Below are positions 3,026 to 24,442 of a DNA stretch of 59,035 nt, piece after piece. The notes beneath the pieces were generated by a model, which saw only the letters and a program-made list of their open reading frames with translations, had not been told where the DNA came from and did not search any database. Made by a program: the position numbers and the translations under genes. This stretch comes from an uncultured Prevotellaceae bacterium (lineage in GTDB: Bacteria > Bacteroidota > Bacteroidia > Bacteroidales > Muribaculaceae). Within the stretch, counting starts at the first letter, position 1. Each line of letters opens with the position of its first letter. The stretch lies in contig ONLH01000017.1 of the NCBI GenBank assembly GCA_900318645.1, positions 1-59,035 of the forward strand. Direction: 5' to 3'.

Positions 3026-3062
3026 TCATAAATTATAGTTTTCACAACCTGAAATATTAGCA

Positions 3063-4421: not shown

Positions 4422-4445
4422 AATAACTTTATTTTAAATTTTCAG

Positions 4446-8300: not shown

Positions 8301-11109
8301 CCTCACCGACCAGAACGGCAAGCCCCATCAGGGCGCTATGCTGCTCGACATGTTCGACAAGGCGATTGCCAGTATCGAGAACAACGATTGGGAATTCATC
8401 AACTGGAGCCCAATTATCAATTCATTTTTTGCTTTTACACAGAATTTGGACCTTGTCAATAGCACTAGAGGAGTCTGGATGGGCGAGGGCTTCAGAATAC
8501 CCAAAGAGGCTTATCCCGAGTTGCCGAGACTTTATACCTACGACCAAATATTCTTCGGCTACGGGTATGGCCGAGGCCGCATGTTGATGAAATCGAATGG
8601 TGTCGCCGACGTCAGCCGTGGTCTGGAAGGCCGCGTAGCGGGTGTGCAGGTTCCGAACGTGTATGGTGCCCGCGCTCCGTCTCTGGAAGGCCACGTCGCG
8701 GGTGTGCAGGTGCAGAACGAATTGGCGATGCAGGAGGAAAGTGTGCTGTTGTCGTATGACGGGGAGGATGAAATGTTCGTGGAACTTTCAGCCAATGAAG
8801 ACATCAAGGAGGCAGCAGTTGACCAGAAGAACCTGGACAAGGTAATCCTGCGCGAGAGTGACGTAAAGACCGCGCTGTGGCAGCCGATGCTCACCAGTGA
8901 CGACAAGGGCAACATCAACGTGGAGTTTGAGGCGCCCAACTTCAACACCACATGGATTGCCCAGGCCGTGGCATGGGACAAGAAGATGACAGGCTCAACC
9001 TGGATGGCAGAGGTGTTGACGCAAAAGCCGCTGATGGTACGCAGCAACATGCCGCGCTTCCTGCGTCAGGGCGACAAGGCGACACTCGCCGCCACCGTGC
9101 AGAACGCTACCGACGAGGCAGCAGCGTGTGATGCCGTGATTGAACTCTTTGACCCGCGCACCAATGAGATCTATGCCACCCGCAAGTTCAACCTGACGCT
9201 CTACCCGATGGGCAGTGAGGCGGTCACCATCGACTGGCAGGTGCCCGATACCGTGGCTATGGTGGGCTTCCGCATCAAGGCTGCCAACAGCACCTTCGGC
9301 GACGGCGAGCAGGTGATGGTGCCCGTGCTGACGACCGTGTCGCCCGTCATCGAGACCGGACCCTTCTATGTCGAGGCTGGAGAGGGACACTTCGAGCAGC
9401 CGCTGCCCAAGTACCCCAAGGACGCCCGCGTGACACTGGAATACTGCGACAACCCCGTGTGGTATTGCGTGCTGGCCCTGCCCACTATCTTCAGCGACCA
9501 GTATAACGTCGCCACCCATGCCGCCCACAGCCTGTTTGCCCTGCAAGTGGCACAAGGCGTTGCCAAGGAACAACCCCAGATCAAGGAGGCCGTCACCTAC
9601 TGGAAGCAACACAACGAGGACAGCACCCTCGTGTCGATGCTCAAGAAGAACCAAGACCTGAAAATCGGCACCCTGCTGGCATCACCGTGGATGCGTGACG
9701 CCGACCGCCAGACGCTGAGGATGTCCAAACTCAACGAACTCTTTGACGATGCCATCGTCAAGAAGGAATATGAGAAGATCATCACCGCCCTGCAGTCGCT
9801 GCAGATGGGCGACGGCGGCTTCACCTGGTTCCGCTATCCGGGTTGCAAGTCCAATGCCTGGACCACAGGCACCGTGCTTGAGCTTATCGGCGAAATCAAG
9901 CACCTGGGCTACCTGCCCGAGGACAGCCGCCTGACCTCGATGGTCAATCGTGCGCTTGCCTACTACGACGCGGAGAATGTGCGCCTGTTCAACGAGGCCA
10001 AGAAGTACTCCAAGGAGCCTTACGGCCTGTTCACCGGATATGCCTACACGCGTAGCCTCTTCCCCGAGGTGAAGCAGCTGTCCAGCGCCAGCGCTGATTT
10101 GTTCAAGAAGACGTTGAAGTATATGGACAAGAACTGGGGCAAGGGCATCACCCTCCAGCAGAAGGCCTACTACGCCATGACGCTTAACCGCAACGGTTAC
10201 CAGAAGACAGCCCGCAGCATCGTCGAGAGCATACGCCAGTTTGCCATCGTGAAGCCCAGTCTGGGCATGTACTGGGACAACCTGCAGACGGGCTACGGCT
10301 GGTGGGAGTTTGACAAAATTGCCTATACCAGCACTATCCTGCAGGCTATGAACGAGATTGATTCACGCCAGCAGGAGATTGACCTGATACGCAAGTGGAT
10401 GCTGCTGATGAAGCAGAGCAATGACTGGGGCAGTTGCAGCCTCGCTGCCGATGCCGTCTATAGCATCCTGAGCACGGGCAGCCACTGGCTCGAACGTGCA
10501 ACCTTGCCCACCATCACCGTTGCCGGCGAACCCGTCAACCTCGACAAGATGGCCGAGTGGCTGGGCTACTTCCGCACTACCCTATCCGCCACCACTGCCG
10601 GTAACGTCGTCATCGACCGCACCGCCAGCGGACCTGCCTGGGGCGCTGTCTATAGCCAGTTCAAGGCACCGATGACCGAAATCAAGGAGAAGGCTATCGA
10701 GGAGGTTTCCATCAGCAAAGAATATTATGTGTATGCCCAGGACGGCTCGCTGCACAAGACCGACGCCTTCAAGGTGGGCGACAAGGTGAAGGTGCGCGTC
10801 ATCATCAAGACCAACAAGGACATGGACTTCGTGACCATGACCGACGAGCGTGCCGCCTGCTTCGAGCCCGTTGACCAGCTATCGGGTTACCGCAGCGAGG
10901 ACAACACCTGGTTCTATCAGGAGACCAAGGACACACAGACCAACGTGTTCATCAACAGCCTGAACAAGGGCACGCACATCATCGGTTATGACGTGTGGGT
11001 GACCAATCCCGGTGAGTTCACCTCGGGCATTGCCACCATTCAGTGCCAATATGCTCCTCAGCTGACTGCCCATAGCGCAGGCAAAATGATCCGGGCCGTG
11101 GAGCAATAA
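5392..11109 (+). CDS. Alpha-2-macroglobulin family protein without thioester
   Basis: A 1,905-residue exported protein. Residues 1-26 are a hydrophobic signal peptide with no lipobox Cys. An MG2-type domain begins at GVYRPGETIQW (residue 520), the bait region spans about 1030-1150, and the conserved A2M block (KTALWQPMLTSDD, then APNFNTTWIAQAVAWD) starts at about 1159. An alpha-helical toroid-like region and a C-terminal receptor-type domain follow. The thioester motif (GCGEQ) expected near residue 1370 is absent, so it would trap proteases by conformation rather than by a covalent bond. The bait region carries a 60-bp tandem duplication, and residues 469-477 are an acidic EDD run encoded by three 9-bp repeats. 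It ends in a strong terminator and seems to be a single-gene unit. Family certain; target proteases unknown. Confidence 0.9.
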   Translation: MTMKQTIIHILSIVLLIMAFPFDSSGKDKVIDFNFPQDVSKAAIADLDQALKTGDGQLTVDALVRYSLAQSGISQDNMADIITRVESVIDKEKRPHIKALLYHLEAMIYQGYRDRFARWSDRENPVEETPADISEWDRKQFDNKITELIEKSLAEPEALKAVAVTSLPGIIKCNELGATYIPTLHEFLLMKGREMFQDVMEIYSLDDTYAEKTNLLNRIVNDWLKTTEGNVPTHIYATNELSGIIPIETYRQYQDNEHCALLLNSIAWENDKLHYKTLQEYVERFPTSIYTAQVKNAISNLESKHVNLRYPKIRSSRDSITVTASVKNANAFTIEVYRIPDDMLDEYSLNPSMLQLVSKHPVKVQGIVPFDVNNVVTTLPPLPYGAYIIRPDIDGDKTSINDNYRHDILHVTDIALFTIGRNDHKDCVGAVDINTGKPLQGVTIMTDEDKPLGTTGSDGTMAISMRINEDDEDDEDDVNSLDESELRAFKGNDRFGYSVEYCKVKNRSISNNSAKVYTDLGVYRPGETIQWTAIVYNWTEKERKVLPGKSIEVIFMDNNNETIDTVTKTTDEYGRVEGTFVVPKDRMNGAFYIELNEKDDKSILETQYVNVSEYKTPTFEVTFPDARNNYVAGQPVKVTGKAMTYSGLPVQNTEVRLSLIQNEWSWWWWRVHNNDGEHLQDTTVMTDEQGNFMIEYPAELFEESKGYKPGKRCWARNNYQVVATVTTDAGETHEESTSFIVGTRRGLVLGSVNDDIYLNDKPIKLPLKYNTTDEEHPNTWCTWEITPIDGKTPVMTGNLNTADPTIDLTSLPSGKYSLEINILDAEEGEQDVDVEREITLYRKGDKTPPVKDCPLWLNPLEQSVDKKNVGHITIGVSSPKAYIYYVAAAVNDIIAQGWLNYDKGMHDFTIKLPKEAGKDVTVRFITYYGTMQWDETVRLQNPYKAESIKITATSFRNKLVPGNTEHWTFSLTDQNGKPHQGAMLLDMFDKAIASIENNDWEFINWSPIINSFFAFTQNLDLVNSTRGVWMGEGFRIPKEAYPELPRLYTYDQIFFGYGYGRGRMLMKSNGVADVSRGLEGRVAGVQVPNVYGARAPSLEGHVAGVQVQNELAMQEESVLLSYDGEDEMFVELSANEDIKEAAVDQKNLDKVILRESDVKTALWQPMLTSDDKGNINVEFEAPNFNTTWIAQAVAWDKKMTGSTWMAEVLTQKPLMVRSNMPRFLRQGDKATLAATVQNATDEAAACDAVIELFDPRTNEIYATRKFNLTLYPMGSEAVTIDWQVPDTVAMVGFRIKAANSTFGDGEQVMVPVLTTVSPVIETGPFYVEAGEGHFEQPLPKYPKDARVTLEYCDNPVWYCVLALPTIFSDQYNVATHAAHSLFALQVAQGVAKEQPQIKEAVTYWKQHNEDSTLVSMLKKNQDLKIGTLLASPWMRDADRQTLRMSKLNELFDDAIVKKEYEKIITALQSLQMGDGGFTWFRYPGCKSNAWTTGTVLELIGEIKHLGYLPEDSRLTSMVNRALAYYDAENVRLFNEAKKYSKEPYGLFTGYAYTRSLFPEVKQLSSASADLFKKTLKYMDKNWGKGITLQQKAYYAMTLNRNGYQKTARSIVESIRQFAIVKPSLGMYWDNLQTGYGWWEFDKIAYTSTILQAMNEIDSRQQEIDLIRKWMLLMKQSNDWGSCSLAADAVYSILSTGSHWLERATLPTITVAGEPVNLDKMAEWLGYFRTTLSATTAGNVVIDRTASGPAWGAVYSQFKAPMTEIKEKAIEEVSISKEYYVYAQDGSLHKTDAFKVGDKVKVRVIIKTNKDMDFVTMTDERAACFEPVDQLSGYRSEDNTWFYQETKDTQTNVFINSLNKGTHIIGYDVWVTNPGEFTSGIATIQCQYAPQLTAHSAGKMIRAVEQ
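6796..6822 (+). repeat. Three perfect 9-bp tandem repeats inside the macroglobulin gene
   Basis: GAAGACGAT is repeated three times in frame and encodes an acidic E-D-D run. Changes in copy number would not shift the frame. Confidence 0.9.
8621..8720 (+). repeat. 60-bp-period tandem duplication in the bait region
   Basis: The stretch starting GTCTGGAAGGCC at 8621 recurs at 8681 with a few changes, giving GLEGRVAGVQVPN and SLEGHVAGVQVQN 20 residues apart. The protein motif resembles the plug of SusC-type TonB receptors (LQGRAAGVQV), which is unusual inside an A2M bait region. Confidence 0.85.
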
Positions 11110-11140: not shown

Positions 11141-11173
11141 AAAACAAGCGACTGAAAATCAGTCGCTTGTTTT
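11141..11173. terminator. Bidirectional terminator between macroglobulin and NRPS operon
   Basis: A 15-bp perfect stem (11141-11155 with 11159-11173) with an AAA loop, flanked by A-runs and T-runs on the two sides. It can end both the plus-strand macroglobulin gene and the minus-strand operon finishing at 11199. Confidence 0.9.
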
Positions 11174-11198: not shown

Positions 11199-11759
11199 CT
11201 ATCTCATAGAGCAGGAGGTGATGATGCAGTCAGCGTGCACGAGAGTCGTGAAACGGTAGCGGTCGGTGTGGTCCAGCATGCGAGGGATGCCACCAGCGAG
11301 GGGTACTCCTCTCAATTTGTACAGGCTCTCTTTCATTGTCCAGAGGCGTGTAAATGTGACTTCAGGACAGAAAGATGAGTTGATTGAGCGCAACTCGGCA
11401 TGGCTCATCACCTGTCTCGCCACGTCGTCACTGTAATTGTCAGTTGTCTCGACGTCAATGCCCACGGGCAATTCACTGATGGCACAAACGACCGCCTGAT
11501 TGCAGTGGCTCAGGCTGAAATGGATTTCAGGGAACCCTTCCAGTGACGGTTTGCCATTACCGTTGTAAATGAACCGTGGCAGAATATTGAGACCATATTC
11601 TGTTAACAAAGCATGCTGCAACAGCTTGTAAACCGCTACGGACAGGCGCTGATCCAGTTCCCGACGATAACGCAGGGCATAATTCCTGCGCCATTCACTC
11701 ACCGAGTCGAGCGCTTGGCGCAGGTCAAAATTCCAAATATTGTCATCAATATAAATCAC
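11199..11759 (-). CDS. Sfp-type 4'-phosphopantetheinyl transferase
   Basis: A 186-residue enzyme that moves the phosphopantetheine arm of coenzyme A onto a carrier-protein serine. It shows the Sfp/AcpT signature: the Mg-binding IGVDxE-like motif as GIDVETTDNY (about residue 96) and the WTMKESLYKLRG helix (about residue 140), where the Trp-x-x-Lys-Glu core is typical. It is the last gene of the NRPS operon and overlaps the MATE gene by 4 bp, so it is expected to activate the two carrier domains of the NRPS. A role in activating the fatty-acid ACP cannot be excluded, but the position argues for a dedicated enzyme. Confidence 0.9.
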   Translation of the reverse strand: MIYIDDNIWNFDLRQALDSVSEWRRNYALRYRRELDQRLSVAVYKLLQHALLTEYGLNILPRFIYNGNGKPSLEGFPEIHFSLSHCNQAVVCAISELPVGIDVETTDNYSDDVARQVMSHAELRSINSSFCPEVTFTRLWTMKESLYKLRGVPLAGGIPRMLDHTDRYRFTTLVHADCIITSCSMR

Positions 11760-13102
11760 TTCTTAAGCTCAAACTGGATGTGGCGTGTCTTATGCAGGGT
11801 ATAGATAATAGCTGCCTCAATCAAGTAAGCGATCATGTAACTGTACCAGATGTATTCCGGCATCAGTCGAGACATGAGCCACAATACAGGGATTACCGTG
11901 AGTGACAAGGCGAGCGAAATAAACAGTGCCATGCGGTGTTGACTATATAGTTTATAGACAATCATCAGCACATAGATATAGCAGAATGGGATGAAACTCA
12001 AAGCGAAAACACGCAGTGCGGACTCACTCTGAGCTATCATTTCGGGCTCATCGCAGCCAAACAGACGTGCAATGGCCTGGGGGAAGAACCAAACCAACAG
12101 ACAGGTGACTACCATTGACGTGGTAATGAACCGGAAGCCACGCTTGATGACTGTCCGTACGCCCTCATCGTCCTTCTTACCCACCTGAATGGCACCCAGT
12201 GACTGTAGGGTCTGACAAGTGCCTGACAAGAAGAGGTTATATACCTGTAACAAATTCATGCACAGTGCAAACACAAAAATACCCGTGCGTCCAGTCGTCG
12301 ATAGCACGATAGTATTGGCGCTAAGCAACAGCAACGTCAAACAGATAGATGCAACCGCCAACGGAGCGCCTTGAGATACAATGCGCCGCCATGATGACAC
12401 GAGCCCATCGGTTGAGAGCACCGGAACGAGTCGCCTGTTTTCGGGGTTTCGCCAATGGTAAAGCAATATAGCAATACCCACAAGATGCCCCACAACAGTA
12501 GCGGCCGACGATCCCGTGATGCCCCACCCAAAGTACTGAATGAACACGATATCAAGCAACAGATTGACCGCATTATCGATGATGACAGCCAGCGAAACCA
12601 GACGAGGGCTGCCATCAACACCCACCATCGTGGATAGTCCCCACATTAAAATGAATGCTGGATTGCCAATAAGCAGCACACGCATATAATCCTCGGCAAG
12701 GGGCAGAATCTGCTCATTGCTACAGAGCATCCGTGCCGTCTGATGCGGGAACATGATTCCACCGACCAAAGTCAACAGCAACCCTAAACCCATGCTGAGT
12801 GCTAGCGCACGTGTGAAGAAGCGCCGAGCATCATCAATCTTCTTCTGGCCCAAGGCGTACGCTACCAGCATTCCAGCACCTGCATTGATGAGCAGATGAA
12901 GGGTGAAGATGAACTGATTGATGGGCTTTGAGAGGTTGATAGCGCTCACACCGTCCTCACTGATGAGGTTGCCCACGATGATACCATCCACCACATTACC
13001 CAGACAGCCCGATAGAGCCACCAGGATATAGGCCCACAAGTAATTATAGAACTGTTTATTGATATTGATATCGTTATCTCGCATTATCAGTTTTTCATTC
13101 AT
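11756..13102 (-). CDS. MATE family multidrug/metabolite exporter
   Basis: A 448-residue inner-membrane protein with about 12 hydrophobic segments in two similar halves, as in MATE transporters (N-half ISEDGVSAINLSKPINQF; C-half TCQTLQSLGAIQVGKKDDEG). These proteins export small molecules using a sodium or proton gradient. It lies 69 bp after the NRPS gene and overlaps the Sfp gene, so export of the NRPS product or self-protection is the likely role. The 69-bp gap holds a nested palindrome. The family call is firm; the substrate is inferred from position. Confidence 0.9.
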   Translation of the reverse strand: MNEKLIMRDNDININKQFYNYLWAYILVALSGCLGNVVDGIIVGNLISEDGVSAINLSKPINQFIFTLHLLINAGAGMLVAYALGQKKIDDARRFFTRALALSMGLGLLLTLVGGIMFPHQTARMLCSNEQILPLAEDYMRVLLIGNPAFILMWGLSTMVGVDGSPRLVSLAVIIDNAVNLLLDIVFIQYFGWGITGSSAATVVGHLVGIAILLYHWRNPENRRLVPVLSTDGLVSSWRRIVSQGAPLAVASICLTLLLLSANTIVLSTTGRTGIFVFALCMNLLQVYNLFLSGTCQTLQSLGAIQVGKKDDEGVRTVIKRGFRFITTSMVVTCLLVWFFPQAIARLFGCDEPEMIAQSESALRVFALSFIPFCYIYVLMIVYKLYSQHRMALFISLALSLTVIPVLWLMSRLMPEYIWYSYMIAYLIEAAIIYTLHKTRHIQFELKK

Positions 13103-13111
13103 GATAGTCCA

Positions 13112-13154
13112 GGTGATCCAGCCACTCTACTGTAAATAGAGATGCCAGATCACC
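13112..13154 (-). promoter_or_regulatory. Nested palindrome between NRPS and MATE genes
   Basis: An outer pair GGTGATC (13112-13118) / GATCACC (13148-13154) and an inner pair CTCTA (13125-13129) / TAGAG (13137-13141) would fold into one interrupted hairpin in the operon mRNA. No T-run follows, so it may stabilise the 3' end of the long NRPS message or set the expression ratio of the exporter. Confidence 0.5.
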
Positions 13155-13171
13155 CAGACGGTTTATCGGTT

Positions 13172-16100
13172 TTAAAGATCAAAGAAGCCTAACGAGCCAA
13201 TGGCAGTTAACATGCGTTCAACATAGTCCCATGAGGTTGGCGACCAAGAGAAGCCCAAACGGTAGAGCACCTGGGTCGTATAGTCGTTGTCACGCTTGAC
13301 ATCGACCGTCTTTTGACCATGAGCCATATCCTGATAAGCCAGCAGTGATGACATCTGCTTAGCCTTCTGAGGATCTTCCTTGGCACGATCCATAGCTTCG
13401 GCAAATTCCTCCTGTTCAACGAAACGCACGCCCTCGCCTACCGAGGTCAATCCCATCAGCACATCACCCAAGAACTGACCGTGAATGTTGTAGGGATGGA
13501 AGACGGTACATTCTTTGGGAGTAGAGCTGAGCAGCACGATAGCGTGGGCCACCTCGTTGATGGGTGAGAACTCTACTTGCTTGTTGCGCATCGTGTGAGG
13601 ACAGCATCCCAGCATGTTATAAACCTTGATGCGTCCCATGAACGAGTTGGTGGCAAAGTTGGCCTGGAACTCGCCATCGGTTGAACGGGCAGCCAGGTTA
13701 CCCACACGCATGATCTTGGCACTCAAGCCATGCAGTGCTACTGCATTGAGGATCAAGCGTTCGGCTATGAACTTGGAATAAATGTATTTATTACCCAAGA
13801 ACTGTCCCATGTAGAGGCGCTGCTCGGTGAAGATATCATCCTTAATCTCACCAGCCCACAAGCCACGCGTGCTTGCCGTTGAAACATGTACGAGTTTAGC
13901 ACCGGTCTTCAAGCAGTAGTCCACACAGCGTTGAGCGCCACCGATATTGACGTCTTCAATCTCGGTTCCCTCGCTGAAGTGCTTAACGATTGCGGCACAG
14001 TTGAAGATGGTATCCACTTGCAATCCTTCACCGAAGTCGCTTGTCACATCGCCCAAGATAACATGGAGTCGTGTACCAAACAGGTCCTTGAATGCATCAG
14101 AGAAGTAGTAGAACAACAGGGTGCGCAGACGACTCTCGGCAGCCTCAAGACTCTTTCCGCGGACCAGGCAGTAGATGTTATCGGCATCGGAGTCGATGAG
14201 TTCGCGCAGGATGTGGATGCCCAGGTAACCTGTTGCACCAGTGATCAGTACATTACCCAATTGTTGACGTTCTCCCTTGCGATAGTTGTCCAACGTGTTG
14301 CGCTGCAACAGGTTGTTGATGGCCGTGTAATCAAATGCCGTTATCTCGCTATCACCCTCATCGTCAGTATCGCCAGTGATCAAGCGTGCCAACTTGCGAG
14401 GTGTTGGATTGGCGAAAACGTCACCGTAGGCCACGTGCATACCTGCTTTGTCGGCTTCAATAATCACGCGGGTCACCACTAGCGAGGTACCGCCCAACTC
14501 AAAGAAGTTGTCAGTAGCGCCGACCTTGTCCATCTGCAGGATTCCCGCAAAGATGTCGCAGAAGGTGCGCTCTGTATCATTGACAGGCTCGACGTAAGCA
14601 GAACTGATCGCCAATTCAGGCTCGGGCAGCGCCTTGACGTCGGTCTTGCCGTTGGGCGTCATGGGCATCTCCTTCAATTGCAAGTAGGCCGTGGGCACCA
14701 TGTACTGTGTCAGGCTCTTGGAAATCTCAGCCTTCAGTGCATCGGGAGCGATTTCACGGTCGGCAGTATAATAGGCACACAGGTGCTCCTTGTCATTAAT
14801 CTTGCGGATGAGGATAACCACCTTCTTGAGGCCTTCAACCTTGAGCATCACATTCTCAATCTCACCCAGCTCGATGCGTAGACCGCGCAACTTGATCTGG
14901 TGGTCGGTACGGCCCAAGATCACGACATCGCCGTCGGGCAGCCACTTGGCATAATCACCCGACTTGTAGATGCGCTCGCCGTGGTAATCCACAAAGCGCT
15001 CACGCGTCATCTCGTCGAGGTTGTTGTAGCCATGAGCCACGCCGCGACCGCCAATATAGAGTTCACCGACAACGCCAACGGGCAATTCGTTGCCATCCTG
15101 ATCCACGATAAACTCCTTGACATTTAACTGCGGCTTGCCCACGGTCACAATGTCGGCATGCGTCAGTTCCTTGTTGTTCGAGGCCACAGTGGTCTCGGTG
15201 GGACCGTAGCAGTTAAAGATGCGAGCTTTGGTGACGTTCCTCAACTGGGCAAGCAACTGGTCGGAGAATTTCTCACCACCGGCACGCACGATGCTGATGC
15301 GGCTGATGGCGTCGCAGAAGTCCTCGCTCGTCAACCACGTCATCCAGCGCGACGGCGTGCCCGATACCATATTGATGTGCTCCTCATTGATGAGACGGGC
15401 AAGGTCAAGAGGATTATTGGCCTGCTCCTCGGTAGCGACAATGAGTGTCTTGCCATTGAAGTAGGCTGTACCGATGTCCTGCAGAGCGGCGTCAAACGAG
15501 ATTGTTGTCACACTCAGCATGCGCTTGGCATCGGTCATGACACCGTTGGCAAACACATTGGCGGGATGTCCGTAAAGGTAGTTGCAGATGCCGCGATGGT
15601 GCAGCATCACACCCTTGGGACGGCCTGTTGAACCACTGGTGTAAATCAGGTAGGCCAGAGCATCGGGAGTGATGTCGGTTGTTACCTTACCGTCGTTATC
15701 ATCGTTAATCAGTTCCTCCACGTCGATGGCCTTGCCTTTAGGCACGGTGTCCAACTTGTCGGCAGTGGTGATGATGTAACGCGCCTCACTGTCTTCAAGA
15801 ATGAGTTTCACACGGTCGGCGGGATACTCTGGGTCGCAAGGGATATAGGCAGCGCCGGATTTCAGTACACCGAATAGGGCGAGAATCAGGCGGCTCGTGC
15901 GCGGCAGCAGCAAGGCTACGCGGTCATGCTCCTTCACGCCGCGTTTTCTCAGGGCGGCAGCGATGCGGCTGGTCACCTCGTCCATCTCCTTATAGGTGTA
16001 TTTGGCATCAATGGCCACCAGAGCCTCATGGTCGGGCTGCGTCTGTGCAAAGTGCCCAATGCACTCGTGGAAGAAGGTGAAGGGGGCATCGGCGGGAACG

Positions 16101-19100
16101 TTGCCCGTGTCCACCTGGCGCAGATGACTCAATTCCTCCTCTTGGCTCTCGCTCACGATAGACAGCTGGCGCAAGCGGGCTTGAGGTGCTTCCATCATCC
16201 TCATAGCGACGGCCACAATACTCTCGGCAAGGCCACGCCCTACCCTCTCGCTGTAAACCGAATCGTCATACTGCACGACTACACCACGCGATTCAATCTT
16301 GATGTTAATCTTGAACTTGGGTACATTGAGTTCCAACAACTCCTGTCCCATTGGCTTACCGTTTACTGTGTATTGCGACAGCACACCCACCTGATAGGCA
16401 TAGGCGATGGCGGGACGGAAGCCGTAGTCGGTAGCAATGCGTGCGAAGGGATAATCCTCATGTCGAAGTGTCTGGTCGAATGTGTCGCTCGCATTTTTCA
16501 GGAACTGTTCAACCGTCACATCATCAATGTTCATGCCCAGGGCGAGCGTATTGACAAACATACCCACCGTGTCGGCAATCTTGAGGTTGCTGCGGCCGCT
16601 GCTGACGGTACACAGATAAACGTCACGATTATTGGTATAGCGAGAAACGACATAAGCCGTAGCACCCAAGAACAGGTGGGCTGGAGTAATCTCTTGACCA
16701 CGGCAGAAGACAGCGGCACGTTCCAGATCTACAGGACATACAGCCTCGCCGATGAAACCTTGCTCATCAGTTTTAGGCAAGTCGGCAGGAATCTCACTAG
16801 CACCCTCACAGGTCTGCAGTTTCTCGGCAAAGAACTGCTGGGATGCCTTGAAGGTCTCGCTCTCCTCGGCAGCCTGCTGATCGGCAACAAAGTCCAAGTA
16901 GTTATAGGACTCTTTCTCAATCGAATTACCCTCAAGGAGAGCATTGATTTGACGAATAAGCAAGTCGGCAGAGCCACCATCAAATATCAAGTGATGGACA
17001 TCCAGCAACAGGTTGACACCAGCCGGGGTCTTGACCACTTCGGCGCGGTACAAGGGCGGTTTCTGCAAGTTGAACGGACGAACAAACTCATTCTTGTATT
17101 TCGCCAGTTCTTCTTCAGTCATTTCGGTGATGTCCACCTCAATGGGAACGCTATCCTCGGTCGTTTGGATAATGCTGTCGCCCTCGGTAGTAAAGTGGAC
17201 ATTCAACTCAGGATGAGCCTCAATGACACGCTTCACAGCATCAGCAAGACGATTAGCGTCAATACCTTCGGGGTAAGAAAGCAGATAAGGGATGTTATAG
17301 ATGGTTGAAGCCGGATTCTTCAGGCAGTCAAAATAAACACCCGTTTGTGCATAGGACAGCGGAGCACTGTTTCTCGCCTCCTGAGCGGGAGACGCAAGAT
17401 TTTGCGTCTCTACAGAGCCCTCGAGCAATGCTTTAAGGATTTCGTTCTCGATAGACTGGATGGTACCGGTCTTGACAAGGCTGCGGGAGTCAAGTGTCAC
17501 ACCATAGCGCTTGTTAACCTGCACTGCCAGCTTAATGGCCGAAATAGATGTCAAGCCAGCATAGCCCAGCACCGTCGTCACACCGAAGTCGGTGTTATTG
17601 ACAATGTCGGCGACTATCTTGTGGATTTCCTGTTCCAGCACATTCATTGGCACATTGACATTTTCGGCGGCAGCAGCCTTCTTTTCAGGCTTGGGCAGTG
17701 CACGCTTGTTCACCTTCTGGTTCTGGTTCAGTGGGATGGCATCAATCTGCATGGTCACAGCTGGTACCATATAGGGCGGCTTCTGGTCCAGAATGAAGTT
17801 GTTGAGCGCTTCAATATCCACCTTGTCATCGCTGACGACATAGGCCGCAATAAACTTGCCGCCGCCTTCCTCGTCAAAGGCCTGAACCGTTGCGTCCTTG
17901 ATGCCGGGGAATTCGCGGATGACACTCTCTACTTCCTTTAATTCGATGCGGAAACCGCGAATTTTCACCTGACCATCGCGGCGACCCACAAACTGGATAT
18001 CGCCCGAGGGCAAATAGCGCACGATATCGCCTGTGCGATATACGTGTTGATACTTTTCGTCGGTAGTAAACGGATTGGTGATATAGACCTCGGCGGTCTT
18101 CTCAGGACGGTTCAAGTAACCGCGGCTCACCTGGGGACCTGCAACCAACAATTCACCAGCTGCTCCCACCGGCAGACGATGACCCTGTGGGTCAACAATA
18201 TACAAGCGCACGTTCTTCGGCGCTTTGCCGATGGGAATCTCCTTCATTTTCTTATCTACAAGGAAATAGGTAATGAAAACCGTTGACTCGGTGGGACCAT
18301 AAAGGTTGAAGAACTTAATGCCCTGCGGTGGCGTGAGTGATGCCAGTTTCTCTCCGCCGGTCGAGAGATACTGCAACGTGTGGTTCTCGACACTTGTCGC
18401 AAACTGATAACACACCTGCGTCGTCATAAACGAGTGGGTAATACCGTTCTGCTCAAAATATTCATTGAGGGCAATAAGATCCAAACGCAATTCCTCAGGA
18501 ACGATATAGACCGTCGCGCCGCAAGTCAATGCAGGGTACGTATCCATCATATTGGCGTCAAAACCGTAGCTGGCATAGGCTGCTACCTTGCATCCTGGCT
18601 TGAGATCAAACATTTGATGGTACCAGTGGCAGAAGGCCACGAGGTTGCGGTGAATCAACTGGCAACCCTTGGGCACACCTGTCGAACCTGAAGTATAAAG
18701 CAGGATGAACAACTGGTCGGGCTTGATATCCACCTGGGGAGCTTCTGCTGCAGGCAGATTCATGATGTCCTTGGTCAAGAGCACTTCACCCTCGTATTCA
18801 TCAACGATGGGACGCAATTCCTCGTCGGCAATCAGCAGTTTGGCGCTGGCGTCCTGCATCATGAAGTTGAGTCGCTCCTTGGGATAACTCGGATCGAGTG
18901 GCTGGTAAGCGCAACCGGCTTTCAGCACGCCTATTGAGGCGATGGGCATCCATTCACAGCGAGGAATGAGTACCGATACAACGTCCTCAGCGCCCAGGCC
19001 CTTGCTAACGATGTAAGCGGCAATGCGATTGCTGATTTCGTCAACTTGGGCATAAGTAAACTGTTTGTCCAGATAAACAGCGGCTATATTGTCAGGGGTG

Positions 19101-20434
19101 GCTTGAACCTGCTGACGGAACAGCGAGACGATGGTCTGAGTGTCATCATATTCCAACTCGCCAGGGTTAAAACTATCGAGGATGGCCACCTGATCGGCTG
19201 TCGCGATGTCAATGTCCTTCAAGTATTCCTGAGCAAGGAATCCCTCGAGCACGGCCTCGTAGCTTTCGAGAATCTGAGCGATGAAGTCACTGGAATACTC
19301 GTTGGAATTATATTCTGCTTTGACCTGTACCTTATCGTCCTTGATGAAGACCTTCATGTAGAACGAGGCGTCAATAGTACTGTTGCCAATGCGGACAGTC
19401 TGCATGGGCTTGCCGCCCATTGTCTCATTGTCAAACAGCATACCGTGCCAGGCAAACATCGAGTTACTCTGCAGATTCAGGTCGGTTACAAGGTCACTAT
19501 AAGTATAGATATCGTGCTGGCGGCAGCCGCCCATCTGCTCTTGTCCACCCAGCAGCAAGTCAAGCACGGTGGTATCGTTGGTGAATTTGGTATAAACGGG
19601 CAGGGTTTTAACAGCCATACCCACCGAATGGGCAAAGCGCTTATCATTTCGTCCGTTATAGACTGTGGTAAACAGACTTTCCTGCTCGTTGTTGAACTTG
19701 GCCAGCAAGTAGGCATAGGCTGTCGTGAACAGCGTGCTCTTGAACACGCCGTTCTGCTTGCAGTAATCTTCTACTCGGTTTAAGTCAAGAGACAGGGTGC
19801 GGAGCAAATTGTCCTCGCTGTGCTCCGGCTCTTCCAGATCGGGAGTGAACTGAGTGAAGGTGTCACCGCAGTCAAAGTTTGCGGCATACCATTTTTTAGC
19901 CTCGTCAAATGCAGGAGTCTCTCGACGTGAGGCTTCATCGTTGGCTACATCCATCAGTGTCAGTTCCTCGGGAAGAAGTTCCTCACCACGGTAGGCCTTA
20001 TCGATGTCTTGCAGCATGATCTGCATCGAGGTGCCATCAACAATAATGTGGTGATAATCCAGGAAGAGATAATAATTGTTCTGATCTCGCAACAATCTGA
20101 CGTGGAACAGACGATCGCCGTAGATATTGAACGGAACTACCAAGTTTGCCTTTTCGGCTTCGATGTCCTGGATGTTCTCGATGGCGAGCGACCAGGGCTC
20201 GTTGTCCATGTCAATGGTCTGCAAGGGTTCTCCATCCTCATTCAGCTCGATGCGTGTAAACAAGGTGGGATGAGCCTTGAAAGCTTTTTCTATCGCTTCA
20301 AGCAAACGTTCACCATCAAGTGAAGGATCGAGTACATAAATATAAGGTAGGTTATAATAGGCTTCACCTTGGTGGCCTACACATTCTACATAGATACCAA
20401 ATTGAGATTTAGATAATGGCGCTGACAGTTTCAT
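13172..20434 (-). CDS. Two-module non-ribosomal peptide synthetase with terminal reductase
   Basis: About 2,420 residues from the ATG at 20434 (MKLSAPLSKSQ); an earlier in-frame ATG at 20491 lies inside the preceding gene. Domain order: C1 (HHxxxDG in YHHIIVDG, about 128), A1 (YTSGSTGVPKG, about 585), T1 (LTSISAI, about 961), C2 (VHHLIFDG, about 1148), A2 (YTSGSTGRPKG, about 1598), T2 (GGTSL, about 1980) and a thioester reductase (TGATGYLG at about 2058, catalytic Tyr-Lys in YIYSKF). Such C-A-T-C-A-T-R enzymes release a dipeptide as an aldehyde, which can cyclise to a pyrazinone or act as a protease inhibitor. The starting C domain suggests an acyl or aminoacyl cap. By eye the A-domain pocket residues match no code I know. 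The whole protein is intact. Confidence 0.95.
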   Translation of the reverse strand: MKLSAPLSKSQFGIYVECVGHQGEAYYNLPYIYVLDPSLDGERLLEAIEKAFKAHPTLFTRIELNEDGEPLQTIDMDNEPWSLAIENIQDIEAEKANLVVPFNIYGDRLFHVRLLRDQNNYYLFLDYHHIIVDGTSMQIMLQDIDKAYRGEELLPEELTLMDVANDEASRRETPAFDEAKKWYAANFDCGDTFTQFTPDLEEPEHSEDNLLRTLSLDLNRVEDYCKQNGVFKSTLFTTAYAYLLAKFNNEQESLFTTVYNGRNDKRFAHSVGMAVKTLPVYTKFTNDTTVLDLLLGGQEQMGGCRQHDIYTYSDLVTDLNLQSNSMFAWHGMLFDNETMGGKPMQTVRIGNSTIDASFYMKVFIKDDKVQVKAEYNSNEYSSDFIAQILESYEAVLEGFLAQEYLKDIDIATADQVAILDSFNPGELEYDDTQTIVSLFRQQVQATPDNIAAVYLDKQFTYAQVDEISNRIAAYIVSKGLGAEDVVSVLIPRCEWMPIASIGVLKAGCAYQPLDPSYPKERLNFMMQDASAKLLIADEELRPIVDEYEGEVLLTKDIMNLPAAEAPQVDIKPDQLFILLYTSGSTGVPKGCQLIHRNLVAFCHWYHQMFDLKPGCKVAAYASYGFDANMMDTYPALTCGATVYIVPEELRLDLIALNEYFEQNGITHSFMTTQVCYQFATSVENHTLQYLSTGGEKLASLTPPQGIKFFNLYGPTESTVFITYFLVDKKMKEIPIGKAPKNVRLYIVDPQGHRLPVGAAGELLVAGPQVSRGYLNRPEKTAEVYITNPFTTDEKYQHVYRTGDIVRYLPSGDIQFVGRRDGQVKIRGFRIELKEVESVIREFPGIKDATVQAFDEEGGGKFIAAYVVSDDKVDIEALNNFILDQKPPYMVPAVTMQIDAIPLNQNQKVNKRALPKPEKKAAAAENVNVPMNVLEQEIHKIVADIVNNTDFGVTTVLGYAGLTSISAIKLAVQVNKRYGVTLDSRSLVKTGTIQSIENEILKALLEGSVETQNLASPAQEARNSAPLSYAQTGVYFDCLKNPASTIYNIPYLLSYPEGIDANRLADAVKRVIEAHPELNVHFTTEGDSIIQTTEDSVPIEVDITEMTEEELAKYKNEFVRPFNLQKPPLYRAEVVKTPAGVNLLLDVHHLIFDGGSADLLIRQINALLEGNSIEKESYNYLDFVADQQAAEESETFKASQQFFAEKLQTCEGASEIPADLPKTDEQGFIGEAVCPVDLERAAVFCRGQEITPAHLFLGATAYVVSRYTNNRDVYLCTVSSGRSNLKIADTVGMFVNTLALGMNIDDVTVEQFLKNASDTFDQTLRHEDYPFARIATDYGFRPAIAYAYQVGVLSQYTVNGKPMGQELLELNVPKFKINIKIESRGVVVQYDDSVYSERVGRGLAESIVAVAMRMMEAPQARLRQLSIVSESQEEELSHLRQVDTGNVPADAPFTFFHECIGHFAQTQPDHEALVAIDAKYTYKEMDEVTSRIAAALRKRGVKEHDRVALLLPRTSRLILALFGVLKSGAAYIPCDPEYPADRVKLILEDSEARYIITTADKLDTVPKGKAIDVEELINDDNDGKVTTDITPDALAYLIYTSGSTGRPKGVMLHHRGICNYLYGHPANVFANGVMTDAKRMLSVTTISFDAALQDIGTAYFNGKTLIVATEEQANNPLDLARLINEEHINMVSGTPSRWMTWLTSEDFCDAISRISIVRAGGEKFSDQLLAQLRNVTKARIFNCYGPTETTVASNNKELTHADIVTVGKPQLNVKEFIVDQDGNELPVGVVGELYIGGRGVAHGYNNLDEMTRERFVDYHGERIYKSGDYAKWLPDGDVVILGRTDHQIKLRGLRIELGEIENVMLKVEGLKKVVILIRKINDKEHLCAYYTADREIAPDALKAEISKSLTQYMVPTAYLQLKEMPMTPNGKTDVKALPEPELAISSAYVEPVNDTERTFCDIFAGILQMDKVGATDNFFELGGTSLVVTRVIIEADKAGMHVAYGDVFANPTPRKLARLITGDTDDEGDSEITAFDYTAINNLLQRNTLDNYRKGERQQLGNVLITGATGYLGIHILRELIDSDADNIYCLVRGKSLEAAESRLRTLLFYYFSDAFKDLFGTRLHVILGDVTSDFGEGLQVDTIFNCAAIVKHFSEGTEIEDVNIGGAQRCVDYCLKTGAKLVHVSTASTRGLWAGEIKDDIFTEQRLYMGQFLGNKYIYSKFIAERLILNAVALHGLSAKIMRVGNLAARSTDGEFQANFATNSFMGRIKVYNMLGCCPHTMRNKQVEFSPINEVAHAIVLLSSTPKECTVFHPYNIHGQFLGDVLMGLTSVGEGVRFVEQEEFAEAMDRAKEDPQKAKQMSSLLAYQDMAHGQKTVDVKRDNDYTTQVLYRLGFSWSPTSWDYVERMLTAIGSLGFFDL

Positions 20435-20456
20435 ATACTTGTTTATTGGGTTAAAT

Positions 20457-21818
20457 TTACCATTTAATTGAGAAAATGCGGGGGTTAACACTCAGTGTGA
20501 TCCAACCCCATCGCAGAGAATTGTTGTTACTGGAACGTTTGAGGCGTTCCATGGTCTCGGTACCTGTCATCCATGATGCACCGATGGCACATTTCACATC
20601 AGGTGTGATCGCGTAGGCAGCCTGCAATTCCACCTCATGCCCCAGAGTCATATCCATGTTCTGAAGCTTGGTCGCTGTTGCCAGATAGTGGTAGCTGCCA
20701 TTGATCATGAGACCTTTCAAGGGCGTGTAAGTGGCTCCTACATAGGCATTCTGCAAACCAGGAGTGAACCCGTTCAGATAAGTGCTCACATAGAAGAAGT
20801 CCATTGCACCATAGAATTTGTGATGGGAGCCATAGACCGTGCTGAAGCCCTTGATGACCTGATGATGAGTCACACCGATAGCCCCTCTGGGAGGAACAGC
20901 AAAATTCTTGTCTCCACTCAGATAGTCATAGCCTGCCTGAATCTTCAAGGTATTCAAGGGACTGTAAGACGCCTTGACACTCGCCATCCAGGCATCAATC
21001 TTAATGCCCTGTTCGCTCTTACCGAACTGGTGATAGTAGGACAGTTCGGCATTCCAGCGTTTGGGTGAGAACGACACATATCCACCCAGCAGATGCTGGA
21101 ACCAAGTACGTCGCGGCATATCCGGGTCACTCTGCATGCCGATATTCATGAACAGCACCGAAGCGCCCAGCGGAATTCTTGAGAAATCATAGTGGTACCA
21201 CAAGTCCTGCATGGTCTTATAGGGTTGAGCACCATTTGCATAATAGGTATCTCCTGTGACCATCACATCAGGATTCTGATTATAGGCCAGTATGAGGTGA
21301 GCCTTATGGCCATTACCTTCATACCCCAAGCGCAAGATGTCGTGGGACGATGAAGCCATGGCCCAATCATCTGAACCGATGATGCGCTCGTCATCATAGT
21401 TCAGCGCCACCCTGCCGACTTGAGCGAACAAGCCGGAACGGGTGGTCATCTTTACCCAAGTCTCGTAGAGGTTGAAAGCGCCTTTTCCCGCCTGTCCCCA
21501 CACGCCGGAATGCTGAGGGGTCACACGGGCCTCAAGCCAGTCACGCTTGAAGTTGATGGGCAATCGTGTGCGCCCCATGATGAAACTGGACTTGGCTGTT
21601 TTTACGTTCTCTTCTTCCTCTTCCTCGCTAATGCCGGTGTTGTCATAGAGCAGTCCGCCATAGCGCGACTCGCCACGCCCCAGGAATTGCAGGTCAATGC
21701 TTATCTCGTTCTTTGGAGCCGTGACGGTATCGTCTGCCTCCTGGGCGCAAAGCAATAAGGCACTGCCGACAAATGCTGTCGACAGTAGCCATTTCCTTAA
21801 GCCATACTTGCAATGCAT
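20457..21818 (-). CDS. Outer-membrane beta-barrel protein (alginate-export/porin-like)
   Basis: About 453 residues from the ATG at 21818 (MHCKYGLRKWLLSTAFVGS), 4 bp after the STAS stop; the longer frame from 21884 would overlap STAS. A signal peptide ends near LLLCAQE. The mature protein is rich in alternating aromatic/polar strands (LRLGYEGNGHKAHLILAYNQ, AELSYYHQFG) and has an acidic EEEEEE run at about residue 65. This pattern and the size fit a 16-18-stranded alginate-export-like porin. It lies between the STAS gene and the NRPS, with 22 bp to the NRPS start, so it may pass the product across the outer membrane. Barrel class is probable; function inferred. Confidence 0.7.
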   Translation of the reverse strand: MHCKYGLRKWLLSTAFVGSALLLCAQEADDTVTAPKNEISIDLQFLGRGESRYGGLLYDNTGISEEEEEENVKTAKSSFIMGRTRLPINFKRDWLEARVTPQHSGVWGQAGKGAFNLYETWVKMTTRSGLFAQVGRVALNYDDERIIGSDDWAMASSSHDILRLGYEGNGHKAHLILAYNQNPDVMVTGDTYYANGAQPYKTMQDLWYHYDFSRIPLGASVLFMNIGMQSDPDMPRRTWFQHLLGGYVSFSPKRWNAELSYYHQFGKSEQGIKIDAWMASVKASYSPLNTLKIQAGYDYLSGDKNFAVPPRGAIGVTHHQVIKGFSTVYGSHHKFYGAMDFFYVSTYLNGFTPGLQNAYVGATYTPLKGLMINGSYHYLATATKLQNMDMTLGHEVELQAAYAITPDVKCAIGASWMTGTETMERLKRSSNNNSLRWGWITLSVNPRIFSIKW

Positions 21819-21822
21819 GGAA

Positions 21823-22128
21823 TTACTCGAACTCAAACAGATTGATAAAGCCTGTAATCTTGAACACGTTCTTGATTTCTTCATTCAAGTTACGCAGGAC
21901 GACACGTTTGCCTTTGGCCTTGGTCTTCTTGAGCACGTCGAGCAGGATGCGCAGGCCGCTTGATGCGATGTATTCCAATTCCTGGCATTCAAACACGATA
22001 TCCTTTACAACCTCGGGGGCTGTAATGGGTTTCAGCGTCTGTTCTGTTTCAATGGCGGCTGCGGTGTCAAGCGAACCGATCATGGTGACGATGATGTTCT
22101 CGTCAATGTTTTGAATCGTTGTTTTCAT
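21823..22128 (-). CDS. STAS-domain anti-sigma-factor antagonist
   Basis: A 101-residue single STAS domain of the SpoIIAA/RsbV type. The phosphorylation loop is clear: LEYIASSGLRIL, with Ser57 in the place of SpoIIAA Ser58. In partner switching the unphosphorylated form binds a kinase/anti-sigma protein, and a PP2C phosphatase removes the phosphate. Both opposing activities appear to be fused in the protein encoded just upstream (19-bp gap). No sigma factor is encoded nearby, so the output of the switch is unknown. Confidence 0.9.
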   Translation of the reverse strand: MKTTIQNIDENIIVTMIGSLDTAAAIETEQTLKPITAPEVVKDIVFECQELEYIASSGLRILLDVLKKTKAKGKRVVLRNLNEEIKNVFKITGFINLFEFE

Positions 22129-22147
22129 TTTTTCTAAATTTTTAGAT

Positions 22148-24361
22148 TTATCGTTTTTTATATTCTTTCTTGAGTGTTAACACATTCTTGCCATCATAGC
22201 GTTCATAGTTGATGGTATCCATCATGGACTGTACCAACAGGATGCCAAGTCCTCCGATGGGACGGTCCTCAACATCGAGTGTCGTATCGACATGGGTCCG
22301 CAGGGTGGGGTCAAACGCCTTGCCCTGGTCGGTGATGATAAACTTCAGGTCATGTTCAGTAGCCATGGCGTCAATCTGGACATTGCCCTCGGTACCTATC
22401 GGATAAGCATAATTCATCACGTTCACCGCAGCTTCCTCAACGGCCAGCATGAGTTGAGACGAGAGTGAGGGCTCAAGGTTTAATCGGTCGGCTACCGATT
22501 TGACAAAGTTGTTGAGCTCGGGCACCTGTTTCACGTCATTGGCCAGGGTAAGCGACTCGCTGAGTACCAGCGTCTCGTCAAGGCGATGATAGTGTATGGC
22601 GAGCATCGTCAAGTCATCGCTCCGCTGAGCCCCGTCGGCAAAACGTACTGATTCGTCATACAAAGCACGCATCAGTTCGTCTGGCTCCGTTCGATTTTGT
22701 TCAACACTAGCCTGGGCGGCATCGATGATGCGCTGTAACCCGAAGAGCTGCCGCTGCCTGTTGGCTGCCTCGGTCAGTCCATCGGTATAGAGCAGCAGCG
22801 TCGTGTCCGGCGGCAATACCGTCTCTTGTTGGACATACGTGAAATCGCTATACAAGCCGATGGGCAGATTGGCATTGACCGGCAATGGCTTCACGCCATG
22901 ATCGAGGATCAAGGGCGCATCATGGCCGGCATTGCAATAGCGCAATCGTCCCGTGGGCAAGTCGAGCACACCGATGAACAGCGTGACGAACATGTTGGTC
23001 TCATTATCCTGTGAGGCTGCCTCGTTGAAGGAGCACATCAACTGGCCCGGATTGCTCATGTTTTGGGAAAACGTCCTGAAGTAGGAATGAACCACCGCCA
23101 TGACCAGCGATGAGGGCACGCCCTTGCCGCTCACGTCACCGATGCAGAAGTACAGCTTCTCATCACGAATGAGGTAGTCATACAAGTCGCCGCCCACCTC
23201 AAACGCTGTCACCTGCATGCCGTTCACGTCCACATCGCGACGATGGATGCCGTGGGTGGGCAACATCTTGGACTGGATGTTCTGAGCTACGTGCAGCTCG
23301 CTGGCGGTATGCTCTTTGCTCAGGTTACTCTCGTACAGATTCCTCAGGTTGCGGTTGTAGCGGTACAGGATGAACCCCAGCAGGGAGAAACCTGCCAGCA
23401 TCATCAGGATGAAGTTGCGACGCATCCTCGTGAGTTTGGAATAGACCTCGTCATCGTAGCACACCTTAACGACCTGCCAGTGGGGCCGCCCCCTCATGAA
23501 AGCATAATAGATGTAGGCCTTGGAACCGTCCTCGCCGTCAACAAAGGTGATTACCTTGCTATGACGGCTGGCGCTGCGCTTTCGCTCAACGGTGCTGTCG
23601 TTGATCAGGCTCACCACGGTATCCACATCTTTCCACTTGGCATGGGTGGAGTCGGGCTGCGCCACCAGGCAGCCGTCCTCGGTCAGCAGCAGGAAGAAGG
23701 TGGATTCCTCCTCGTGCTTCATGTTGAGGGTATCGACGATGCTCTGGGTAGCCATGTCGATACCGAAGGCGGCAACCACATTGCCGTTCTCATCGGTCAG
23801 CGGCACGGAATAGGTCACGACCTGCTCGCCGCTCGCAAACTCGTCAAAATAGGGGTCGCTCCAACTCGCGTTGCCGTTCTCCACCGCCTCGTGATAGAAC
23901 TCGCGGGTGGTGTAGTTGTAGGGGTCCGCCAGCTGGCGGACGACGATGCTGTCACCGCCGCTGCGATAGGCACTGGGCTCAAACAGCCGGCCCTTCTCGG
24001 GATAGCGGTCGGGGACAAAGGCCACAAAACTGCTCATCACGTCGGGGTTGGTGCTCACGATGCGCTCAATGATGGGATATATCTTGTCGGGGTGATGGAT
24101 TTGCTGCCTGACGGGCCACAGATAGTTGCGCGTCATGCTCTCGTGGGAACGCAGGATGCCTCGAACGCGCACCGCCTTAAGCGTCATCTCACTCTCGGTG
24201 CGGTTGTCCAGCTCTTCCTCAAGCAGGGAGTGGGCGTAGTTGTACTGCACGAGGGCCACAATCTCAATGAGCAAACCTGCCAGCAAAATTATACCTAATG
24301 CTGATAACGTTCGCTTGGAATAGCGCACCTTCAGTTTCTCAAACAACGCCTTGACGGTCAT
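22148..24361 (-). CDS. Membrane sensor with PP2C/SpoIIE phosphatase and HATPase kinase domains
   Basis: A 737-residue protein that starts the operon. Order: transmembrane helix (about 18-42), a periplasmic dCache-like sensor (about 45-300, with YNYTTREFYHEAV and AAFGIDMA), a second transmembrane helix (about 315-335), a SpoIIE/PP2C phosphatase domain (about 365-580; FCIGDVSGKGVPSSLVMA and LLLYTDGLTEAAN carry the metal-binding Asp residues), and a C-terminal RsbW-like ATPase (about 600-735; VEEAAVNVMNYA N-box, ITDQGKAFDP, GGLGILLV). It therefore carries both the likely eraser and writer of the STAS phosphoserine. An external ligand is expected to set the balance. Domains are clear; the ligand is unknown. 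Confidence 0.92.
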   Translation of the reverse strand: MTVKALFEKLKVRYSKRTLSALGIILLAGLLIEIVALVQYNYAHSLLEEELDNRTESEMTLKAVRVRGILRSHESMTRNYLWPVRQQIHHPDKIYPIIERIVSTNPDVMSSFVAFVPDRYPEKGRLFEPSAYRSGGDSIVVRQLADPYNYTTREFYHEAVENGNASWSDPYFDEFASGEQVVTYSVPLTDENGNVVAAFGIDMATQSIVDTLNMKHEEESTFFLLLTEDGCLVAQPDSTHAKWKDVDTVVSLINDSTVERKRSASRHSKVITFVDGEDGSKAYIYYAFMRGRPHWQVVKVCYDDEVYSKLTRMRRNFILMMLAGFSLLGFILYRYNRNLRNLYESNLSKEHTASELHVAQNIQSKMLPTHGIHRRDVDVNGMQVTAFEVGGDLYDYLIRDEKLYFCIGDVSGKGVPSSLVMAVVHSYFRTFSQNMSNPGQLMCSFNEAASQDNETNMFVTLFIGVLDLPTGRLRYCNAGHDAPLILDHGVKPLPVNANLPIGLYSDFTYVQQETVLPPDTTLLLYTDGLTEAANRQRQLFGLQRIIDAAQASVEQNRTEPDELMRALYDESVRFADGAQRSDDLTMLAIHYHRLDETLVLSESLTLANDVKQVPELNNFVKSVADRLNLEPSLSSQLMLAVEEAAVNVMNYAYPIGTEGNVQIDAMATEHDLKFIITDQGKAFDPTLRTHVDTTLDVEDRPIGGLGILLVQSMMDTINYERYDGKNVLTLKKEYKKR

Positions 24362-24434
24362 CTTTGGATAGATTGCTACTAACGATATACTTTAGCACCC
24401 CCCCACACACATCACATCAGACTCAGGGAGTCTG

Positions 24435-24442
24435 CAAATTTA
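24435..24442 (-). promoter_or_regulatory. -7 box for the NRPS operon
   Basis: TAAATTTG on the minus strand lies about 73 bp before the phosphatase start. No clear TTTG is found at -33. It is the only good -7 box in the gap, so transcription of the six-gene operon likely begins just downstream. Confidence 0.45.

What the first reader, a model, noticed from the sequence alone, without database searches (positions are those of the whole stretch)
11199..24361. NRPS operon with a terminal reductase and a built-in partner-switch sensor
One minus-strand operon joins a dCache-PP2C-HATPase sensor, a STAS protein, a porin-like barrel, a C-A-T-C-A-T-R NRPS, a MATE exporter and an Sfp enzyme, with gaps of 4-69 bp. 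The reductase predicts a dipeptide aldehyde or a cyclised product. Established knowledge: reductase-ending gut NRPSs can make peptide aldehydes that inhibit proteases. The coupling of such an NRPS to a membrane phospho-switch is the unusual part. Both the structure of the product and the signal that turns the operon on are unknown.
Basis: partly seen in the sequence, partly recalled or inferred. Interest (0 to 1): 0.75.

Follow-up and report, generated by a model that had tools for sequence, protein, structure and literature searches.

The report
Sensor-switched lipopeptide-aldehyde operon, rumen Bacteroidales
A rumen-type bacterium carries a six-gene operon that appears to sense something outside the cell, make a small peptide ending in an aldehyde and export it; related bacteria keep these genes together, and a similar set was noted in 2010 in a rumen methane-producing microbe.

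Summary
The operon is real: dCache-PP2C-HATPase sensor, STAS, porin-like barrel, C-A-T-C-A-T-R NRPS, MATE and Sfp on one strand, gaps -4 to 69 bp, terminator-like stem behind. In 297 family genomes the 41 with this NRPS type also match the sensor: 38 linked, a 39th with STAS beside the NRPS at a contig end, 2 unlinked. R-domain catalytic residues are invariant in 67 of 67 full R domains. The second A-domain pocket is nearly fixed in close relatives, while the dCache is the fastest-changing part and tracks STAS better than the NRPS. Likeliest product (inference): an N-acyl dipeptide aldehyde rather than a pyrazinone. This genome has one RsbW-type kinase, one such STAS and no SigB/F/G over cut-off, so the switch looks dedicated and a classical sigma output is doubtful. 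The pairing is not new: a 2010 paper describes a dimodular NRPS beside serine phosphatases, an anti-sigma antagonist and MatE in the rumen methanogen M. ruminantium. Verdict: new variant of a known kind.

The parts
24434..24442 (-). TAAATTTGC, Bacteroidota -7 promoter-like box upstream of the sensor (consensus recalled)
   Evidence: sequence; TANNTTTGC within 130 bp upstream in 16 of 25 loci where the sensor is the first gene, shuffle mean 0.61, max 3
22148..24361 (-). sensor: dCache-like (about 23468-24082), PP2C/SpoIIE (22589-23164), HATPase_c_2 (22166-22543)
   Evidence: tested catalytic residues kept in 113-125 of 125 sensors
21823..22128 (-). STAS-only protein, anti-sigma-antagonist type
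   Evidence: TIGR00377 71.4 bits, cut-off 53.45; first Ser of SSG in 123 of 123
20457..21818 (-). outer-membrane barrel-like protein (ORF opens at 21884; start chosen by eye)
   Evidence: PF13372, 30.2 bits, cut-off 25.2; no NCBIfam match
13172..20434 (-). NRPS C-A-T-C-A-T-R (ORF opens at 20491): C1 about 19172-20431, A1 17642-19114, C2 16130-17371, A2 14612-16051, T2 14378-14566, R 13172-14314
   Evidence: two HHxxxDG motifs and R motifs present
11756..13102 (-). MATE exporter
11199..11759 (-). Sfp-type phosphopantetheinyl transferase
   Evidence: best named relative AusB, 58.5 bits, below its cut-off 225
11141..11173 (.). terminator-like 15-pair stem between Sfp and the convergent alpha-2-macroglobulin gene

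Best explanation
A self-contained sense-make-export operon. The dCache domain of the membrane sensor reads a periplasmic signal; its PP2C and HATPase domains dephosphorylate and phosphorylate the STAS protein at the conserved serine (inferred from catalytic residues, as in SypE-SypA and RsbU/V/W). The state of STAS sets the output of the operon. Sfp primes the NRPS; C1 loads an acyl group, A1 a hydrophobic residue, A2 a second residue (possibly aromatic), and the R domain releases an N-acyl dipeptide aldehyde (or alcohol). MATE moves it across the inner membrane and the barrel may pass it through the outer one. The likely role is inhibition of proteases of competitors or host, by analogy with N-acyl dipeptide aldehydes of gut Clostridia. 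Shown: operon, domains, intact motifs, conserved linkage, steady A2 pocket, variable sensor. Inferred: phosphorylation cycle, product, export route, role. Unknown: the signal and the direct target of STAS.
For: Domains and order. 41 of 41 genomes with this NRPS type match the sensor at E <= 1e-30; 38 linked, one more with STAS next to the NRPS at a contig end, 2 unlinked. The 3 genus genomes without an R match also lack the sensor. Own genome: one HATPase_c_2, one TIGR00377 STAS, no SigBFG over cut-off. In the family set, where another gene or a longer gap parts sensor from STAS, STAS lies 4-288 bp from the NRPS (L054, L061, L062, L071, L073; also L053 and L056, where no sensor is on the stretch). 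Eight loci add a ligase gene related to F390 synthetase/PaaK, one of them scored (99.6 bits, cut-off 251.9); L069, L070 and L113 have an extra A-like first domain without the amino-acid Asp; both fit an acylated product.
Against: C1 was not shown to be a starter-type domain. No product, phosphorylation or expression data. Sensor-STAS pairs also occur with other cargo: the script counts 33 of 80 sensor loci with an NRPS hit, one (L154) only an acyl ligase, so 32 of 80. Four genus genomes keep sensor-STAS-barrel without this NRPS (L166-L169). Two genomes have sensor and NRPS unlinked. Some genus genomes (G079, G193, G207) carry a second sensor away from the NRPS, so the switch is not sole everywhere. 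In L103 the parted STAS sits by the barrel, 1.35 kb from the NRPS. For G101, G199 and G223 the sensor match is partial, 32-34% identical.
Confidence: 0.6

Rival explanations
1. Autoinduction: the dCache domain senses the operon's own exported product in the periplasm and STAS turns production up.
For: Sensor, synthetase and exporter share one operon, and the dCache would face the compartment into which MATE exports (inference). Pyrazine/pyrazinone autoinducers are reported in Klebsiella oxytoca (start of abstract in the search listing).
Against: Among 25 loci the dCache has 44% mean identity while A2 has 84% and R 82%; a receptor for one fixed product would be expected to vary less. L037 and L039 have 91-92% R identity to the window but 43-46% dCache identity.
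Confidence: 0.12
2. Classical partner switch: the HATPase domain holds a sigma factor and STAS frees it, so the operon belongs to a transcriptional regulon.
For: The HATPase_c_2 domain matches RsbW and SpoIIAB models and structures.
Against: No SigBFG over cut-off in the genome; best match 120.8 bits in a 285-aa frame against 234.35, probably the primary sigma (recalled). The operon's upstream box is of the primary-sigma type (consensus recalled). Other sigma classes were not tested.
Confidence: 0.15
3. The sensor-STAS pair controls something else (envelope or stress) and merely travels with the NRPS.
For: Sensor-STAS-barrel persists without the NRPS in some genomes; other sensor-STAS pairs sit beside alarmone-type enzymes and transporters.
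Against: On the sensor tree the NRPS label needs 8 changes against 32.7 in shuffles; gene order is reshuffled yet linkage is mostly kept; an NRPS-STAS-PP2C-Sfp row occurs in another family with an R domain 34-37% identical.
Confidence: 0.13

Closest known systems
M. ruminantium M1 NRPS cluster mru0068 (PMC2812497, 2010; first author Leahy recalled; NRPS section read)
   Same: Two C-A-T modules; neighbours are two serine phosphatases, an anti-sigma factor antagonist and MatE; a separate cluster has PPTase, STAS, phosphatase and anti-sigma kinase. The authors already propose environment sensing and NRPS regulation. Rumen.
   Different: Archaeon; PPTase and kinase lie elsewhere; no barrel listed; kinase and phosphatases listed as separate genes. 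The text says thioesterase, the Fig. S8 legend thioester reductase. Its genes were not fetched here.
Gut N-acyl dipeptide aldehyde clusters (BGC0001686; ruminopeptin)
   Same: NRPS-made acyl dipeptide aldehydes of gut bacteria; predicted product class.
   Different: Producers named in the passages are Clostridium and Ruminococcus (PMC8518294, PMC12327764, passages). Their neighbouring genes were not seen here.
AusA/AusB aureusimine system
   Same: Best named NCBIfam relatives of NRPS and Sfp; AusA R domain is the second-best solved relative.
   Different: Scores below curated cut-offs; AusA lacks the first C domain and makes pyrazinones (both recalled).
SypE-SypA (Vibrio fischeri)
   Same: One dual serine kinase/phosphatase acts on a STAS-only protein whose target is unknown (PMC8256260, passage).
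   Different: SypE is a response regulator (title in its reference list), not a dCache membrane sensor; controls biofilm.
Rv1364c
   Same: Best solved relative of the sensor profile (3ke6, 8.5e-26, positions 379-681): PP2C plus kinase in one chain.
   Different: PAS sensor, fused STAS, sigma-F pathway (all recalled).

Membership tests
Gut reductase-NRPS dipeptide aldehyde pathway | NRPS ends in a reductase with intact catalytic residues | tested here: met
   Gly motif, Thr, Tyr, Lys in 67 of 67 full R domains out of 77 NRPS frames
Gut reductase-NRPS dipeptide aldehyde pathway | First C domain is a starter (acylating) type | tested here: inconclusive
   HHxxxDG intact in the window, some relatives add acid-activating parts; no C-type phylogeny made
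Gut reductase-NRPS dipeptide aldehyde pathway | Product is an acyl dipeptide aldehyde | not testable with these tools
   needs chemistry
AusA (aureusimine synthetase, NF047350) | Score over curated cut-off | tested here: not met
   1167.6 bits against 2500
STAS partner switch | STAS with conserved phospho-serine | tested here: met
   first Ser of SSG in 123 of 123; that this is the phospho-site is recalled from SpoIIAA
STAS partner switch | PP2C and HATPase catalytic residues | tested here: met
   PP2C Asp 392, 409, 582, 583 in 124-125 of 125, Asp395 in 113; HATPase Glu643 125, Asn647 124, Asp678 125 of 125
STAS partner switch | Cognate sigma factor as output | tested here: inconclusive
   no SigBFG over cut-off in a genome 91% complete; other sigma classes not tested
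STAS partner switch | Phosphorylation and dephosphorylation of STAS | not testable with these tools
   needs biochemistry
M. ruminantium mru0068-type cluster | C-A-T-C-A-T NRPS beside PP2C, STAS and MATE genes | tested here: met
   window; description
M. ruminantium mru0068-type cluster | Common ancestry of the genes | tested here: inconclusive
   the 6vtj R domain (archaeal origin recalled, not confirmed by a call) falls in the starred 31-row group that holds all 23 sensor-linked R domains on a tree of 37 rows chosen from 81; long branches; archaeal sensor not compared

The most novel reading that the evidence does not exclude
The STAS protein acts directly on the NRPS (or on its export), so that a peptide assembly line is switched by partner switching without transcription, with an exchangeable sensor-STAS cassette that lets each strain place the same product under a different external signal; the kit would be shared between rumen Bacteroidales, Clostridia-type bacteria and methanogens.
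Probability: 0.2. Interest if true: 0.85.

Novelty: new variant of a known kind. Interest (0 to 1): 0.55.

Why it matters
It shows that linkage of a partner switch to a reductase-ending NRPS is a stable feature of a group of uncultured rumen-type Bacteroidales and not a curiosity of one methanogen. It gives a set of different sensors for what looks like one conserved product, makes the unknown output of STAS switches without a clear sigma factor testable, and points to a likely protease-inhibitor chemistry in the rumen, where proteolysis matters for animal nutrition.

Tried and rejected
Rejected: that sensor/STAS are chance neighbours. Rejected: that the flanking C10 proteases and alpha-2-macroglobulin belong to the system; among 47 fetched loci C10 hits appear only in L071 and L078 and A2M in none, on flanks of a few kb. 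Doubted: the amino-acid-binding dCache motif (recalled); its Arg is not kept in alignment A1. A-domain substrates: only pocket letters were read, with positions recalled from GrsA; no trained predictor was on hand. Window A1 D-A-M-F-L-T-L-V-F (the F, position 278, set by eye because the alignment left a gap), A2 D-A-Q-S-V-A-C-V-A. Alignments A3 and A4 were made for the structure jobs only.
Full report
Observation. The NRPS is C-A-T-C-A-T-R; both C domains keep HHxxxDG and the R domain keeps TGATGYLG and YIYSKF, aligned with PDB 6vtj (5.2e-67) and AusA (8.6e-34). Among 77 NRPS frames looked at, 67 hold a full R domain, and in 67 of 67 the three Gly, the Thr, the Tyr and the Lys are kept. HHxxxDG occurs twice in 62 of 77, once in 13, never in 2; the 77 include short-type and cut-off frames.

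Conservation in the family. An R-domain query over 297 genomes of the window's family (drawn from a larger group) hit 45. I class 41 as the window's type by open frame, identity or a cut contig end (33 of the 40 genus genomes listed, 8 in other genera), and 4 (G156, G164, G272, G280) as having only a shorter or partial type. A sensor query over the same 297 hit 49: those 41, those 4, and 4 more remote ones (G004, G144, G246, G287). Of the 41, 38 have the sensor linked (G256 across a contig end, seen in L170; G135 about 14 kb off with STAS next to the NRPS), G252 has STAS next to the NRPS at a contig end, and G146 and G154 are unlinked. For G101, G199 and G223 the sensor match is partial, 32-34% identical. 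Three genus genomes, one of them a single contig, lack both. Gene order varies (sensor-STAS behind the NRPS or MATE in L064, L069, L070, L072; barrel in front in L054, L062, L066, L071), yet linkage stays. In 393 genomes of the order 12 have an R match, own included; of the 11 others, G559, G649 and, with only 34-37% R identity in a different family, G548 carry STAS and sensor-type genes beside it, and 8 do not on the stretches fetched, some of them short. In 395 genomes of the phylum 2 match, own included, and the other has no sensor or STAS hit nearby.

Sensor elsewhere. All titles name Bacteroidota except L094, an 'uncultured bacterium'; 63 of 80 carry a ruminant word or isolate code, 17 name no source. 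By script 33 of 80 have an NRPS hit, but L154 only an acyl ligase, so 32 of 80; 72 of 80 have a STAS hit in the locus; short contigs hide some neighbours. In the rest, recurrent neighbours, each known from one scanned representative, are a RelA/SpoT-type synthetase (18 loci), an APH-type kinase (12), an HD protein (8), ABC, Na+/H+ and CitMHS-type transporters and a LuxR-type regulator. On a FastTree of 123 sensors, 105 classed (64 NRPS, 41 none; 18 left out for short flanks), the label needs 8 changes against a shuffled mean of 32.7, 0 of 500 as low: old linkage with repeated losses or swaps. Long branches make deep nodes unsure.

What varies and what does not. In the 25 of 48 loci (window plus 47) that hold all eleven parts, mean pairwise identity is dCache 44%, PP2C 58%, HATPase 61%, STAS 66%, barrel 59%, C1 63%, A1 80%, C2 73%, A2 84%, R 82%, MATE 75%. 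Distances of the three sensor domains correlate with STAS at 0.82-0.87 and with NRPS domains at 0.58-0.81; MATE fits no part well (0.22-0.51). Over 49 loci sensor and R still correlate (0.66, 0 of 2000 permutations as high). L037 and L039 keep 91-92% R identity to the window with 43-46% dCache and 56-59% STAS identity: sensor and STAS appear to change together against a steady synthetase. Fast change is common for periplasmic sensor domains (general knowledge), so selection is not shown. The last A-domain pocket reads DAQS[VCA]ACVA in 31 of 40 family-set loci with two or more A domains and in 14 of 27 of the named set, which repeats some genomes; the rest have other codes. So one product type in close relatives, others further out.

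Mechanism. Catalytic residues are near-invariant (rows covering under 80% of the query were dropped). The window's genome holds one HATPase_c_2, one TIGR00377 STAS, two SpoIIE matches (the second 35.8 bits) and no SigBFG over cut-off; it is 91% complete. In the genus 57 of 61 genomes have an HATPase_c_2 match, 56 over the cut-off, some only histidine-kinase-like, and some genomes have a second sensor, so 'one switch' holds for this genome, not for each relative. A TANNTTTGC box lies upstream in 16 of 25 loci against 0.61 expected. Together this suits a dedicated switch with a non-sigma output. In the family set STAS stays by the NRPS where it is parted from the sensor; in the named set L103 is a counter-example, with STAS by the barrel and 1.35 kb from the NRPS. 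This hint is weak.

Product. The intact first C domain suggests acylation, which would block pyrazinone formation; relatives with an added ligase or an A-like first domain lacking the amino-acid Asp agree. N-octanoyl-Met-Phe-H from a Clostridium cluster is the nearest named example (PMC8518294 passages). C1 type and substrates remain untested.

Prior art. PMC2812497 (NRPS section read) describes this kind of neighbourhood in M. ruminantium, with a full-length NRPS match in Syntrophomonas wolfei. None of the ten paper searches (open-licence PMC only, top rows of listings seen) showed a paper on this coupling in Bacteroidales; most subscription papers are not held. A rumen BGC survey counts NRPS clusters; the words aldehyde and reductase do not occur in its main text (PMC8241843, passages). 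Hence new variant of a known kind.

Noticed in passing
L117, L123, L135, L141, L144, L150, L152, L153, L159-L161, L163, L165 and others: Paralogous sensor-STAS pairs sit near a RelA/SpoT-type synthetase (18 loci), an APH-type kinase (12) and an HD_4 protein (8), one representative of each scanned: a possible partner switch tied to alarmone metabolism.
   Followed up: partly
G000:C41:50617-51762 (L078), also L075-L077, L080, L081: A second, shorter reductase NRPS (one C-A unit plus R, about 1440 aa) in the same genome and genus, with no sensor or STAS hit next to it.
   Followed up: partly
L089, L167: Sensor-STAS-barrel-Sfp without NRPS and MATE between barrel and Sfp, as if that pair had been lost cleanly.
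   Followed up: no
24648-26300 and 26610-28277: Two tandem C10 cysteine proteases with Spi inhibitor domains, divergent from the operon; hits to them in only 2 of 47 relatives' loci.
   Followed up: partly
5392-11109: Bacterial alpha-2-macroglobulin (1905 aa) convergent with the operon.
   Followed up: no
1053-4421: AAA ATPase plus a small DUF4276/TOPRIM-like protein (weak) next to an integrase; the ATPase matches AriA, AbiLi and HEC-01A defence models at 76-83 bits, the small protein AbiLii weakly.
   Followed up: partly
L042 about 2290-4500; G060:C19:62371-64560: The sensor of G222 is split into two ORFs and that of G060 holds one TGA in the search frame; assembly error or broken gene, not resolved.
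   Followed up: no
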